Assembly: GCA_016182605.1 (NCBI GenBank)
Contig: JACPGE010000008.1
Location: 1-64,000, forward strand
Source of the DNA: Candidatus Hydrogenedentota bacterium
GTDB taxonomy: Bacteria > Hydrogenedentota > Hydrogenedentia > Hydrogenedentales > JAEUWI01
Length of the DNA: 64,000 nucleotides
Reading direction: 5' to 3'
Part shown: in pieces, positions 31,514 to 36,676 of the stretch
Position numbering within the stretch: position 1 is the stretch's first letter
Layout: each line of letters begins with the position of its first letter
The notes under the pieces: generated by a model
Database searches by the model: none
Told to the model about the DNA's origin: nothing
Seen by the model: only the letters and a program-made list of their open reading frames with translations
Program-made: the position numbers and the translations under genes

Positions 31514-32881
31514 TTAATGGTTCTTATGCAACTGTCCGTCTGCGTGATAGTGGTAGCCGTCCGGCGCCTTGCTGCTCCCGCCCGCAAGCTTCAGCGCATA
31601 TGCCCCATCCAGCACCACCTCATCGCCCTCTTTCACCCCGCTGCGCACCACCACCCAGCGCCCATCGGAAACGCCCAGATCGGCCTTCACCGGCAGGGCG
31701 CGGTTCGGATCGGTGGGATGACGCCGGAAGAAAAGCGTGTCGAGCCCCTCCTGCACCAGCGCAGCCACCGGTATCGCGAGTTCCGACTCGGCCGTTTCCC
31801 GCGGTATCTCCAGATACGCCGAGACACCCGCACGCGCCCACGGCGCAAGCGCCTCCGGTTCCACGTAGACCGATATCGTGCGATCTTCGGCGTTCGCCGT
31901 AAGCCCGATTTGCATGGGGCCGCTCATCGCAGCCTGCAAGTCCACGCCCCCGCCCTGCGGCGGCACGATCAGGCTGCGCAAGCCGTTGCTGAGATGGATC
32001 AGTTCCGGCTGCGGCGCCTCGGCATGAAAGCGGACCGCCGCCGGGTCCAGCGTGGCGATCACGAGTTCGCCCGTCTCCAGCCAGGCGCCCTGATTTACGG
32101 AGAGCGTTTCCACAATGCCCCATTCCTGCGCACGCACCTCCAGCGCGCCAATCGATCTCCAGCGCGCCGCTCCATCCGCCGTGGGTGCCCGCAGCGCTTC
32201 CGCGTCCAGCGAGGTAATCGACGACAGTGTCCGCAAGCGCGACGCAAAGTGCTCTTCGGCCTCTTCCAGACCCGCCACGGCCGCGTCAATCTCCGCGCGT
32301 AAACGCTCCAGACTGCTCGTCAGCGCCGCCGCCTCGGACTCCAGATCCGCTTTGCGCACCTCCAACGCGGCCAACTGCGCCACACGCCGCCGCGTCGTGG
32401 CCTCCGATGCCTCCGTTTCATTCAGACGCGCCCGGGCCACCTTCAGCGCAGCCTCCGCCAGCTTGATCTCGCCCTCGGCCTCCACCGCCTCATGCTGGAT
32501 GCCGCGCCACTCCGGCGAGTCGATGCTAAAAAGCAGATCCCCCGCCTGCACTTCCTGAAAAGGGGCCACTGCGGCGTGCACATGCCCCGTAAGCAGCGCG
32601 CGGTATTCGTGCCGCGCGCCCGGCAGCAGTTCAAACACACCGGGCGCGCGCAACGTGTCCTGCACCTGCCGCTTCTCCACCTTGGCGAAGCTGATGCCCA
32701 AATTGTTCCGCACCTCGGAAGGGATCGCCACGCCGCCCGCCTTGGGCGTGTTGTCCATCACGGCGGCCCCACTCGTCTCGGCGCCTGCCGGTGTTGCCGC
32801 TTCCGGCGCATTGATACATCCGGCCGCGAACACCGAAAGTGCGGCGCACACCGCACATCGAACCTTAGTTCTCCAATGCAT
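31514..32881 (-). CDS. RND periplasmic adaptor (CzcB/CusB-like lipoprotein)
   Basis: A 455-residue membrane-fusion protein joining the pump to the outer-membrane channel. The signal peptide ends in lipobox FAAGC near residue 22. A long coiled-coil hairpin (about residues 115-230, rich in EAEGEIKLAEAALKVARARL-type heptads) lies between two lipoyl half-motifs, followed by beta-barrel and membrane-proximal domains. The ATG at 32881 has GGGAGA upstream, and the gene overlaps the end of the outer-membrane factor gene by 17 bases, so translation is coupled. The C-terminus ends with DGYHYHADGQLHKNH, a His-rich tail that may bind the substrate metal. Confidence 0.88.
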   Translation of the reverse strand: MHWRTKVRCAVCAALSVFAAGCINAPEAATPAGAETSGAAVMDNTPKAGGVAIPSEVRNNLGISFAKVEKRQVQDTLRAPGVFELLPGARHEYRALLTGHVHAAVAPFQEVQAGDLLFSIDSPEWRGIQHEAVEAEGEIKLAEAALKVARARLNETEASEATTRRRVAQLAALEVRKADLESEAAALTSSLERLRAEIDAAVAGLEEAEEHFASRLRTLSSITSLDAEALRAPTADGAARWRSIGALEVRAQEWGIVETLSVNQGAWLETGELVIATLDPAAVRFHAEAPQPELIHLSNGLRSLIVPPQGGGVDLQAAMSGPMQIGLTANAEDRTISVYVEPEALAPWARAGVSAYLEIPRETAESELAIPVAALVQEGLDTLFFRRHPTDPNRALPVKADLGVSDGRWVVVRSGVKEGDEVVLDGAYALKLAGGSSKAPDGYHYHADGQLHKNH

Positions 32882-34298
32882 CGTCATTCTCCCTGTTTAT
32901 CGGCACGGCCAGCGTGTGGGGTGTGCGCAGCGCATCCAGTTGCGTGCGCGCGATCTGTTCCTGGGCCACCGCATCCACCAGTTCGAGTTTGATCGTCAGC
33001 GACTGCGCAAGCACGGCGTAAAAGAGGCTCCGATCCGACTCGCCCGCTTCCAGAAGCGCCTGCGATTCCGCGATTTGACGGTCGGCCAGCGGCGCCACTT
33101 CCGTTTCCAGCCGGGTCCGTTTCGCGCTCGCGCCTGCCCAGGCCGCCCGGTGCTGCGCTAGTTCCCCCGTGAGTTCCTCGTATGCCGCCATCACCCGCGC
33201 ACGCGCCACCGCACGCTGCGCCACCGCCTCCGCAATGCCGCCACGGTTGCGGTTCCATACCGGCAGCGGCACGCCCAAACCCAGCGCGATCACGGTTTCG
33301 TCCTTCTCCTTCGTGAAGTCAGGACCCAGTTGAAGATCGGGATACTGTGCGCGTATCGCAACCTGGAGCTGCTGCTCCGCCGCTTCATAGTCCGCCTTCA
33401 GCCGGATGATCCGGGGATGATCTTCGGCAATGCCCGCGGCCCCATCGTCCTGCTCCCGTGGCGCGGAGTCCGGTGTCAACGCAGGCGCCAATTCAACAGG
33501 AGCATCGGGCCTCAGGCCGGCCAGCGAAAGCAGACGCAGCTTCCTCGCCTGCGACAGGTGCGCGGCCTCGTCGAGCAGCGCCTGCGTGCGCCCTTCGTCC
33601 ACGAGAAACAACCGCCCGCTGCCCGGCGCCAATTCCCCGGCCTCCGCGAGCCGCTGCGCCTTCGCGGAGAAGGCCGTGAGTACCTTGAGGTGCGCATCGA
33701 GGACTTCAGCCCGGCGCGCCTGCGCCGACCACGCAATCCACGCTTCACGCAACTCCTGGAGCAGGGTCCACTCCGCCACAGCCACTTCCAGCGCCGCCGC
33801 ATCGTACTCCGCCCAACGCCACGCCCGCTGCGCCGCAGGGCGGCCGGAAAGCGGAATCGTCAGACTCAGCCCCGCGGCACTCACCCACGAACGGGATACA
33901 CCCGCAGCCTCCTCAAAAAAGCCATCCGCGCCGTCCTCGCGTTTGCGGCCGCCGCTGAGCGACAGTGCAGGATCCGGGATGAGCCCCGCATGCTGCGCCC
34001 GGGCGCACACGGCCAGCGCTTCCGCCCGGGCCACCTGCAACCCGGGGTTGTGCCACAGCGCCACGGCCTGCGCCTCGGCAAGCGTGAGCCCATCCGCCAC
34101 ATCGAAGGCGTCCGGCGCCCGATTACCCGCCTCCGCGCGCAGGGCGGCGGCAAGTTCCGCAATGGGTGCAATCGCTATGTCCCGGGCTTGCCAGCTTTCC
34201 AGATGCGCTGGCATATCCAGCGGCTGCCGGGGAATGTGCTGGCACCCCGCGCACAGAAGCAGGGCTAGACCAAATAGAGTATAGGGGCGTGTATACAT
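32865..34298 (-). CDS. Outer-membrane efflux channel (CzcC/TolC-like lipoprotein)
   Basis: A 477-residue outer-membrane factor. It has a signal peptide and lipobox LLCAGC, then the two long alpha-helical repeats of the TolC family, with LTLAEAQAVALWHNPGLQVA at the start of the first. Charged helical stretches such as AEQQLQVAIRAQYPDLQLGP are typical of the second. It forms the export duct for the CzcA/CzcB-like proteins encoded downstream. The ATG at 34298 was chosen because the signal peptide begins there; no strong ribosome-binding site is seen. Confidence 0.87.
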   Translation of the reverse strand: MYTRPYTLFGLALLLCAGCQHIPRQPLDMPAHLESWQARDIAIAPIAELAAALRAEAGNRAPDAFDVADGLTLAEAQAVALWHNPGLQVARAEALAVCARAQHAGLIPDPALSLSGGRKREDGADGFFEEAAGVSRSWVSAAGLSLTIPLSGRPAAQRAWRWAEYDAAALEVAVAEWTLLQELREAWIAWSAQARRAEVLDAHLKVLTAFSAKAQRLAEAGELAPGSGRLFLVDEGRTQALLDEAAHLSQARKLRLLSLAGLRPDAPVELAPALTPDSAPREQDDGAAGIAEDHPRIIRLKADYEAAEQQLQVAIRAQYPDLQLGPDFTKEKDETVIALGLGVPLPVWNRNRGGIAEAVAQRAVARARVMAAYEELTGELAQHRAAWAGASAKRTRLETEVAPLADRQIAESQALLEAGESDRSLFYAVLAQSLTIKLELVDAVAQEQIARTQLDALRTPHTLAVPINRENDDALEN

Positions 34299-34374
34299 GG
34301 GAAAACCCGTGGTGGGCCTGCAACATCGGAACAAGGCCGCAGATGCGCAGGCGGACGATTAGTTTGGCGTGAAA

Positions 34375-34794
34375 CTAGATGCGTCCAGACACGGGGGGGC
34401 CGCGAAGAGGATCGGTCTCGCGTGCCGGAAGCAGGGGAGGGGATGCCGGCTCCGGAAATCCCGCCACACGGTGCGCCAATACGGGCGCCGCCGCTATCGT
34501 GTCCACGGGTGCGGCAACCAGGGGCGCTTGGTGCTCCCCGCGCCGTTGGACACGGTTCACATGATCCGAAATGCCGTGGGCATGGGCGCCCTCGGCGTCC
34601 TCCGAATGGCTGTGGCCAACGCTGTCCTCCGTGGGAGCCGCATTGGCACTGCCATGATGATGGCCATGATCGTGCGCGCCGTGCCCCGCAACGTGGGCAT
34701 GCTCGAACACAATGTGCAAGGGCACGCCCAGAGCGAACCAGCACATAAGCATCAATCGGAGAGATATCGGGATGAGTCTGCACATGACGGGCAT
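34375..34794 (-). CDS. His-rich exported protein leading the efflux operon
   Basis: A 139-residue protein with an N-terminal hydrophobic segment (residues about 8-28) and then a His-rich stretch (HVAGHGAHDHGHHHG, and GHSHSEDAEGAHAHG). The rest is Pro/Ala-rich and low in structure. Such proteins often precede Czc/Cus-type pumps and are thought to buffer periplasmic metal. The family is not recognisable beyond that. It lies 76 bases upstream of the channel gene on the same strand, so it is probably the first gene of the operon. No metalloregulator gene is adjacent. Confidence 0.6.
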   Translation of the reverse strand: MPVMCRLIPISLRLMLMCWFALGVPLHIVFEHAHVAGHGAHDHGHHHGSANAAPTEDSVGHSHSEDAEGAHAHGISDHVNRVQRRGEHQAPLVAAPVDTIAAAPVLAHRVAGFPEPASPPLLPARETDPLRGPPVSGRI

Positions 34795-34866: not shown

Positions 34867-34932
34867 CCTCACACCACCACACACGCCGCCGTCCAAGGCT
34901 CCTCCTCCGTGCTTACCCGCACGTACTGCCCC
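34867..34932. repeat. 66-bp direct repeat, left copy
   Basis: These 66 bases are identical to 36057-36122, which form the 3' end of the degenerate phosphoesterase gene including its stop. This copy is therefore a C-terminal fragment of that gene (about 20 codons, ending PWTAACVVV). Similarity continues weakly for some 15 bases. The two copies bracket the 1.12-kb segment carrying the proteinase and small hypothetical genes. Confidence 0.85.
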
Positions 34933-35042
34933 TGCCCGCCGCCCCATGTTCTCTGAGGAGTTGGCTGTCAGTAAGACTCATTTCGGCGACCTATTCCGGT
35001 CAAGCGCAACCCTGAAATTATCGGTCGAAGACCGCTCACACG

Positions 35043-35789
35043 CTACTGCGGTGGACGGGTCAAGGAAATCATATGGGCGACGCCCATATGATTCTCTATG
35101 ATCTTGCATGCGCCAGTCGTCGAGAGGGTGAGCTTGAGCGCATGATGCACGGACAACACCAGATCCTGAAGCTCCTGGTCCTGTTCCAACGGGGTTATGT
35201 CGAGTCCCAGTTCACTGAGGACGTCGGCGTGAACATGCCGGGTATGCGACTTTGTCTTTGATTGGTCTGTCAGGCCGTCCACAACCCGTTGCGCCCGGGA
35301 ATCCGCGTCTGAATAATCGGAAAACATGTTCTCGCACAGCCAATTCCGGACCAGCTCTTCTGACCAGTCAATCGCAAGTTGGCATTGGGAAATCAAGGTG
35401 GGATGATACTTCGCAATCATCGTGCCGCCAGACATGGCCATCTGGGGAACGACCGCACGAATATTGTTCCCGAACATGGTGCGCAAGTAATGCACAATGG
35501 ATTCTGTCGCGGCAATGTCGCCGCCGGGCGTATGCAGGAACAAATCCAAGCCCAAGGCGCGATTCATTCCGTGAATCGCTGTCATAAAACCATTCTTGTC
35601 CGCGTCATTGATCGGAAAGACATGGCGGCCCACATCTGCGGGAACGTTCTTGTCCTGCCACCCACTGTAGTAAACGATGGCATTGCGATGCGTGTACTGA
35701 AAGAGCTTCTGAAGATACTTCTGCCGGAGTTGGTCGTGCGCGGCAGGGGTTGCCTTCACTTCAACCATGAGATCCCGCCAGTTGGGCAT
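35043..35789 (-). CDS. Serine dehydrogenase-type (SppA/ClpP-like) proteinase, internally deleted
   Basis: A 248-residue member of the SDH_sah/ClpP-crotonase group of serine proteases. The N-terminal part is normal: NAIVYYSG, GLDLFLHTPGGDIAATESIV and the nucleophile region VPQMAMSGGTMIA. Directly after MIA the sequence jumps to KYHPTLISQCQLAIDWSEEL. In related proteins some 55-60 residues, including the conserved SSLGPIDPQ segment, normally lie between. This looks like an in-frame deletion, so the protein may be inactive or altered. The comparison is from memory of the family. It is encoded three bases after a small gene, inside the cassette bounded by 66-bp repeats. Confidence 0.75.
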   Translation of the reverse strand: MPNWRDLMVEVKATPAAHDQLRQKYLQKLFQYTHRNAIVYYSGWQDKNVPADVGRHVFPINDADKNGFMTAIHGMNRALGLDLFLHTPGGDIAATESIVHYLRTMFGNNIRAVVPQMAMSGGTMIAKYHPTLISQCQLAIDWSEELVRNWLCENMFSDYSDADSRAQRVVDGLTDQSKTKSHTRHVHADVLSELGLDITPLEQDQELQDLVLSVHHALKLTLSTTGACKIIENHMGVAHMISLTRPPQ

Positions 35790-35792
35790 GAC

Positions 35793-35996
35793 CTAATCCA
35801 TCATCGAAAGCGGGACAGAAGTGCAGGACAATTCGAAGTAATAGTAACCGCCGTCGTGTGTTTCAGGGCCGGTAAGCTCCTGATACGGAAGGAAATGGGC
35901 TCGATCTTCTTCCGTCGCCAATTCGAGATCGCGATAGAGCCCCAATATCTGCTCTTCCGAAAACACGGTTCCAGTGGATTTCTTGTGCACGTGCAT
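35793..35996 (-). CDS. Small hypothetical protein paired with the proteinase gene
   Basis: A 67-residue protein I do not recognise. It opens with HVHKKSTGTVFSEEQILGLYRDLE, a predicted amphipathic helix, and ends in a short beta-type region, GGYYYFELS. The ATG at 35996 has AAGGA seven bases upstream, and the stop is three bases before the proteinase start, so the two are cotranscribed. It may be an adaptor or inhibitor of the proteinase; that is inference from the pairing. Confidence 0.55.
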   Translation of the reverse strand: MHVHKKSTGTVFSEEQILGLYRDLELATEEDRAHFLPYQELTGPETHDGGYYYFELSCTSVPLSMMD

Positions 35997-36056
35997 ATCG
36001 CTTCCTTGCTGGTTTAGACCAGTATACCACGTCACTTCGCAGCCCGCTACCGCCTT

Positions 36057-36122
36057 CCTCACACCACCACACACGCCGCCGTCCAAGGCTCCTCCTCCGT
36101 GCTTACCCGCACGTACTGCCCC
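36057..36122. repeat. 66-bp direct repeat, right copy
   Basis: Identical to 34867-34932. This copy is the authentic one, since it forms the last 20 or so codons and stop of the phosphoesterase-like gene. Duplication of a gene's 3' end on both sides of a cassette is the pattern left by site-specific integration into a gene end, or by a recombination-mediated duplication. No integrase is present in the cassette. Confidence 0.85.
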
Positions 36123-36676
36123 GCACCGCCGCCCGTGGCAAGGGGGGGCGGGGCAATCATCAGCGTGCTGCCAATCCACGTCGTGAAAAACGCCCCGGCA
36201 CTCCCGCAAATCAATATCGGGCTGGGCATCTCCTCGCGAAGCCGCGACAGCCGCTCTTTCGACAGATCCTCGCCCACCACCTCGCGGGGGTTCGAAGGCG
36301 ATCCGCAGCATAGCCCAATCTCAATCCCGTCCACCGTATGACTCTCCGATTTCGGCAGGCCTCGCAGCCATTCCAGGTCCCGGCTCGCAATCTGGGCCCC
36401 CGCACGCTCGAGTTCCGCAAACGATTCCGGGCTCATCTTCCGCATCAGCGCGTTCCGCTTCCGCTCCAGGCTCGCCAGCAGCCGATCCTCCATTCCCTGC
36501 ACCCCCTCAATGCCGCGCTTACGCAGCCCAGCGGCGATTTCCGGCCCGCCCTCACCCCCGATCACGAGGTTGCCCGTGTGGAAAATCGTATAGATTCCCT
36601 CGCTTTCTATGGCCTGAATTACTCGCGAGAACAATGCTGCGTCGCCGCGCACCGCGCCAATCACTGCAAAAATCAT
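36059..36676 (-). CDS. Degenerate calcineurin-like phosphoesterase
   Basis: A 205-residue protein with the outline of a YfcE/MJ0936-type metallophosphoesterase but without its metal ligands. The usual ISDxHGN opening reads IGAVRGD, and the GDxxxxG motif reads GNLVIGG. The typical C-terminal GH motif is replaced by SAGAFFTTW. It probably does not bind the dinuclear metal centre and may be a pseudo-enzyme with a binding role. I chose the ATG at 36676 because the fold begins there, with AAAGG about eleven bases upstream. Its 3' end is duplicated at 34867. Confidence 0.65.
   Translation of the reverse strand: MIFAVIGAVRGDAALFSRVIQAIESEGIYTIFHTGNLVIGGEGGPEIAAGLRKRGIEGVQGMEDRLLASLERKRNALMRKMSPESFAELERAGAQIASRDLEWLRGLPKSESHTVDGIEIGLCCGSPSNPREVVGEDLSKERLSRLREEMPSPILICGSAGAFFTTWIGSTLMIAPPPLATGGGAGQYVRVSTEEEPWTAACVVV

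What the first reader, a model, noticed from the sequence alone, without database searches (positions are those of the whole stretch)
34867..36122. Two-gene cassette bounded by 66-bp direct repeats made from a neighbouring gene's 3' end
The 66 bases at 34867-34932 are identical to 36057-36122, the last codons and stop of the phosphoesterase-like gene. Between them lie only a 67-residue hypothetical gene and an SDH-type proteinase gene. This is what integration into a gene end with duplication of the target looks like, yet there is no integrase. Perfect identity suggests the event is recent.
Basis: partly seen in the sequence, partly recalled or inferred. Interest (0 to 1): 0.6.

Follow-up and report, generated by a model that had tools for sequence, protein, structure and literature searches.

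The report
Phage-derived gene pair between attachment-like repeats
A bacterial gene's last 66 bases are duplicated around two small genes that are commonly carried by phages next to their integration enzyme, so this looks like the shrunken remnant of an integrated phage-like element whose protease gene has since lost part of its active site.

Summary
In detail: 34867-34932 and 36057-36122 are identical over 66 bp, only these two copies exist in the 6.76-Mb assembly, and the right copy is the native 3' end of the phosphoesterase-like gene. Between them lie only two coupled minus-strand genes, in DNA of lower G+C. Comparison adds three things. (1) The pair (small gene + SDH/ClpP-like protease) is a recurring unit found in many phyla and in at least 130 viral contigs, with a coupled small upstream ORF in most loci checked. 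(2) In phage records it lies near the record end and next to a tyrosine integrase far more often than chance. (3) The window copy of the protease has an in-frame loss of about 55 residues, removing near-invariant GPIDPQ. Best reading: attL/attR-like repeats of a phage-type element integrated into a gene's 3' end, reduced to its edge cargo after loss of the integrase, the cargo itself decaying. No empty site could be shown: no congeneric genome is held and family members are too distant (34-40% protein identity). Kind of event: known. The phage-borne pair is uncharacterised and is the more interesting part.

The parts
36057..36122 (-). Right 66-bp repeat: native 3' end (about 20 codons, stop, 2 nt) of the phosphoesterase-like gene; att-like
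34867..34932 (-). Left 66-bp repeat, non-coding duplicate of the gene end; att-like
   Evidence: (tblastn-type hit to residues 176-205 of the phosphoesterase)
34933..34944 (.). Imperfect extension of the left repeat (9/12 matches to 36123-36134), C-rich and so weak evidence
35793..35996 (-). 67-aa small gene; divergent member of the small ORFs coupled upstream of SDH proteases
   Evidence: profile from 20 relatives scores it 21.0 bits vs 9.1 for the best of 2000 shuffles
35043..35789 (-). SDH/ClpP-like serine protease gene (248 codons) with an internal in-frame loss of about 55 codons; probably inactive
35406..35423 (-). Approximate junction of the internal deletion (MSGGTM|IAKYHP); in intact relatives the two joined places carry similar short DNA words (e.g. 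ATGATCGCG and ATCATCGCG in L054)
36059..36676 (-). Host phosphoesterase-like gene whose 3' end is the target; the divergent HU gene next to it is conserved in the family

Best explanation
The two repeats are the attL/attR-like ends left by site-specific integration of a phage-type (tyrosine-integrase) element into the 3' end of the phosphoesterase-like gene. The element carried a copy of the gene's last codons, so the gene stayed intact, and the original end was displaced to 34867-34932. The element carried, next to its attachment site, a two-gene cargo unit (small protein + SDH/ClpP-like protease). Integrase and all other element genes were later deleted, most simply between the SDH stop (35043) and the left repeat, leaving att - small - SDH - att. 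The protease then, or before, lost about 55 codons by slippage between short repeats and is probably dead. Shown: repeats, native gene end, low G+C, phage carriage of the pair, its bias to integrase and prophage edges, the protease deletion. Inferred: that the repeats are att sites, that an integrase acted, and the order of losses.
For: 66-bp repeat equal to a gene's 3' end, gene end intact; only two copies in the genome; insert 52-55% G+C against mostly 60-70% in the genes either side. Pair relatives in phages of Porphyromonas, Shewanella and Gordonia and on phage-like plasmids, one with excisionase and integrase directly upstream of the pair, and in at least 130 IMG/VR contigs, best 69% identical to the G006 relative. 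Small upstream ORF coupled to SDH in most viral and genomic loci; the window's small protein belongs. Of 43 non-redundant viral records, 24 have SDH within 3.5 kb of the record end (9.7 expected); of 30 with an integrase, 12 have it within 1 kb (1.7 expected) and 19 within 3.5 kb allowing circularity (7.1 expected); none of 20,000 random placements reached any of these. In 23 of 50 records the 5' side of SDH (where the small gene lies) is within 3.7 kb of the record end, against 8 for the 3' side; in the window the small gene begins about 60 bp from the right repeat.
Against: No integrase or other phage gene remains; no empty site or intact element with this 66-mer was found. Direct repeats at the ends of ten viral records were not convincingly recovered (records may be trimmed). 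No other SDH locus has flanking repeats of this kind within 5 kb. The remnant is unusually tidy, with about 60 and 110 bp between genes and repeats. In several phages the pair lies in the interior, not at an edge.
Confidence: 0.66

Rival explanations
1. The two-gene unit is itself a non-autonomous mini-element (like a satellite or integrase-less cassette) that was integrated as it is, by an integrase acting in trans, through an attachment site that mimics the gene end.
For: The insert is compact, with only about 60 and 110 bp between genes and repeats; the pair recurs as a unit in many phyla; the genome holds other tyrosine integrases.
Against: Other copies, including one in the same family (L090), have no flanking repeats and no common boundary; only one copy of this repeat pair in the genome.
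Confidence: 0.15
2. The repeat arose by a non-site-specific duplication (strand slippage, illegitimate recombination or a decayed tandem duplication) while the pair was captured downstream of the gene.
For: One copy is non-coding and nothing but the repeat points to a recombinase; this side of the gene is not conserved in the family.
Against: The duplication starts 2 bp after the stop and reaches about 20 codons into the gene, enclosing exactly a phage-borne unit of different composition; a decayed tandem duplication should leave other duplicated sequence, and none was found.
Confidence: 0.14
3. Assembly artefact: a false join at a 66-bp overlap placed an unrelated fragment beside the gene end.
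For: The genome is a 130-contig assembly and the repeat is of k-mer size.
Against: Sequence is continuous through two coupled genes and both flanks, in a 163-kb contig; each repeat copy has its own distinct flanks on both sides.
Confidence: 0.05

Closest known systems
Prophage or genomic-island remnants in the 3' end of protein-coding genes (from general knowledge: e14 in icd and similar)
   Same: Gene 3' end duplicated at both ends, gene end kept intact, phage-type cargo inside
   Different: Only two cargo genes and no integrase left; attachment not demonstrated
PF01972 SDH_protease / PHROG 11747
   Same: Window protein passes the Pfam cut-off (34.7 vs 31.3 bits) and matches PHROG 11747 at 3.5e-67
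   Different: Window copy lacks about 55 residues, including near-invariant GPIDPQ; falls below the NCBIfam equivalog cut-off for SDH family Clp-fold proteinase (45.9 vs 250 bits)
Phage lysogenic-conversion ('moron') gene pairs (from general knowledge)
   Same: Short gene unit carried by unrelated temperate phages at varied places, often beside int
   Different: No phenotype known for this pair; no PADLOC defence match
Integron gene cassettes
   Same: Small genes between direct repeats of about 60 bp
   Different: The repeat is a coding gene end with no GTTRRRY core site, not a palindromic attC

Membership tests
Element integrated at a gene 3' end (attL/attR) | Direct repeats equal to the target gene's end, with the gene kept intact | tested here: met
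Element integrated at a gene 3' end (attL/attR) | Integrase in the element | tested here: not met
   None between the repeats and no PF00589 match on contig C24; so described as a probable remnant, not filed as an element
Element integrated at a gene 3' end (attL/attR) | Empty site in relatives | tested here: inconclusive
   Only 6 family relatives held, phosphoesterase 34-40% identical, downstream side not syntenic
Element integrated at a gene 3' end (attL/attR) | Cargo of mobile-element origin | tested here: met
SDH/ClpP-like serine protease (PF01972) | Sequence match above the curated cut-off | tested here: met
SDH/ClpP-like serine protease (PF01972) | Complete active-site region as conserved in relatives (Ser in MSxGTM, GPIDPQ, HxRH) | tested here: not met
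   Ser and HxRH motifs present, GPIDPQ region deleted; model confidence below 50 at residues 117-127 against pLDDT 90.7 for an intact relative
SDH/ClpP-like serine protease (PF01972) | ClpP-type fold of the intact family | tested here: met
   Intact relative's model matches ClpP and SppA, E 2e-4 to 1e-3, prob 1.00, modest TM-scores of 0.4-0.65
Known anti-phage defence system | Match to PADLOC models | tested here: not met
Integron cassette | attC site with core GTTRRRY | tested here: not met
   Read directly from the 66-mer on both strands

The most novel reading that the evidence does not exclude
The small-protein + SDH-protease pair is an undescribed two-gene phage module (lysogenic conversion, superinfection exclusion or toxin-antitoxin-like, with the small protein as partner or regulator of the protease), spread across phyla and often placed at prophage edges beside integrase; the window holds a stranded, protease-dead copy.
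Probability: 0.5. Interest if true: 0.6.

Novelty: new member of a known kind. Interest (0 to 1): 0.36.

Why it matters
As a locus it is an ordinary kind of event: the stump of an integrated element. What could matter is the cargo: a compact, coupled small-gene/protease pair carried by unrelated phages of many phyla, often at the prophage edge beside integrase, for which I found no described function. Such edge positions are where phages often keep genes that change or protect the host (general knowledge), so the pair is a good candidate for a phage-defence or lysogeny assay.

Tried and rejected
Empty-site search by DNA in the family: only the phosphoesterase/HU side is conserved. Empty-site test for the G006 copy of the pair: its flanking genes lie apart in G001, G004 and G005, so no clean site. 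Search of viral contigs for an exact 21-mer of the repeat (possible attP): none. Flanking repeats at other SDH loci: none except a 126-bp repeat some 2-3 kb away on either side in L061. Recurrence of the phosphoesterase 3' end downstream in 29 homologues: none within the roughly 1.5 kb held, 0.2 kb in one. Direct repeats at the ends of ten viral records: inconclusive, 17-18 bp in one, control up to 19. A home-made integrase profile on the genomic loci gave no hit, but the seed choice was partly wrong, so it says nothing. Literature searches on SDH proteinase with phage, defence or moron terms found nothing relevant. Tandem duplication, integron cassette and transposon target duplication (66 bp is too long) were considered and rejected or ranked low. 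A 5-bp inverted repeat (CGTGC-TTACCC-GCACG) in the 66-mer resembles a recombinase core but is expected by chance about as often as not to be ignored (own estimate about 0.15), so it is not used.

Full report
Observation. The 66 bp at 34867-34932 and 36057-36122 are identical, 1190 bp apart. The match continues for 12 bp with three adjacent mismatches, in C-rich sequence, so the extension is weak evidence. Whole-assembly search found only these two copies. On the minus strand the right copy is the last ~20 codons plus stop of the phosphoesterase-like gene (36059-36676), and alignment with 29 relatives shows that this C-terminus (..TEEEPWTA..) is native. The phosphoesterase and the divergent HU gene beside it are conserved in the family. 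The left copy is non-coding. Between the copies G+C is 52-55%, against mostly 60-70% in the genes either side.

Content. Two minus-strand ORFs of 67 and 248 codons, 3 bp apart, fill the insert. The second passes the Pfam cut-off for SDH_protease and matches PHROG 11747 strongly. Neither has a PADLOC match. Relatives of the protease occur in records labelled Actinomycetota, Omnitrophota, Acidobacteriia, Verrucomicrobia, Bacteroidales, Chloroflexi, Proteobacteria and others, and clearly in one of six family relatives searched (G006).

The protease is damaged. Intact relatives read ...MSxGTMIA - about 55 residues - WQPIIAKY...; the window protein reads MSGGTMIAKYHP. In relatives the two joined places carry similar DNA (e.g. 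ATGATCGCG and ATCATCGCG in L054), so slippage between short repeats explains the in-frame loss. The lost part holds near-invariant S, GP, D, P and Q. An intact relative models with high confidence (pLDDT 90.7) and resembles ClpP and SppA; the window protein models less well, with the stretch around the presumed catalytic Ser below 50. That the protein is inactive is an inference. The catalytic roles of Ser, Asp and His are inferred from conservation, not tested.

The pair is a unit. Most SDH loci, genomic and viral, have a small ORF, mostly 55-90 codons, ending within a few bases of the SDH start or overlapping it; in about a dozen viral loci the scan found none. A profile from 20 of these small proteins, built without the window's protein, scores the window's small protein at 21.0 bits; the best of 2000 shuffles reaches 9.1. 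The 20 were chosen by eye for a shared motif, so this supports membership of that subgroup; other small ORFs differ more.

Phage link. Seven phage records hold a relative, as do phage-like plasmids, one with excisionase and integrase directly upstream of the pair, and at least 130 viral contigs. Among 43 non-redundant viral records, SDH lies within 3.5 kb of the record end in 24 (9.7 expected), within 1 kb of a PF00589 integrase in 12 of 30 (1.7 expected), and within 3.5 kb allowing circularity in 19 of 30 (7.1 expected); no random placement out of 20,000 did as well. Records are incomplete and some ends are contig breaks, so the edge figure is softer than the integrase figure. Not all carriers fit: in the Mu-like, lambdoid and Porphyromonas elements the pair lies in the interior.

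Mechanism. An element with an att site matching the gene's 3' end, carrying the pair at its edge, integrated and kept the gene intact; integrase and the rest were lost, and the cargo decayed. The small gene begins about 60 bp inside the right repeat, and in viral records the 5' side of SDH is near the record end about three times as often as the 3' side, so the missing part most simply lay between the SDH stop and the left repeat. The act of integration and the order of losses are inferred. Identity over 66 bp bounds divergence below about 4.5% only; 'recent' is not shown.

Limits. No genome of the same genus is held; the six family relatives are too distant for an empty-site test. No intact element with this repeat was found. 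Viral record ends gave no clear att repeats. The literature library gave nothing on this pair; that is a limit of the library as well as of knowledge.

Verdict. The interpretation as integration into a gene end is largely supported by independent evidence on the cargo, but the absence of integrase is best explained by reduction and does not point to a new mechanism. The locus is a new member of a known kind. The phage-borne pair is uncharacterised as far as I could find and merits a functional test.

Noticed in passing
window 35066-35094: Hairpin with a perfect stem of about 13 bp and a 3-nt loop (AATCATATGGGC-gtc-GCCCATATGATT) inside the 3' end of the SDH gene; folding z-score -5.8. Possibly a quasi-palindrome made perfect by template switching; no run of T follows.
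   Followed up: partly
window 36005-36022: Short inverted repeat CTGGT-CTAA-ACCAG just upstream of the small gene, next to TATACT: possible operator or promoter of the pair; not supported by the promoter scan.
   Followed up: partly
L090 9962-10867 (G006): An intact SDH protease in a family relative stands alone between two ordinary genes; in congeners those two neighbours lie apart, so the site is also a rearrangement breakpoint.
   Followed up: partly
L092 7600-8575 and L068 3255-4200: SDH relatives with in-frame stops or split frames: decay of this gene is not unique to the window.
   Followed up: no
window 31514-34794: Efflux-type genes (CzcB/CzcC-like by reading of the translations, not by a family search) and a His-rich small ORF lie directly beyond the left repeat.
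   Followed up: no
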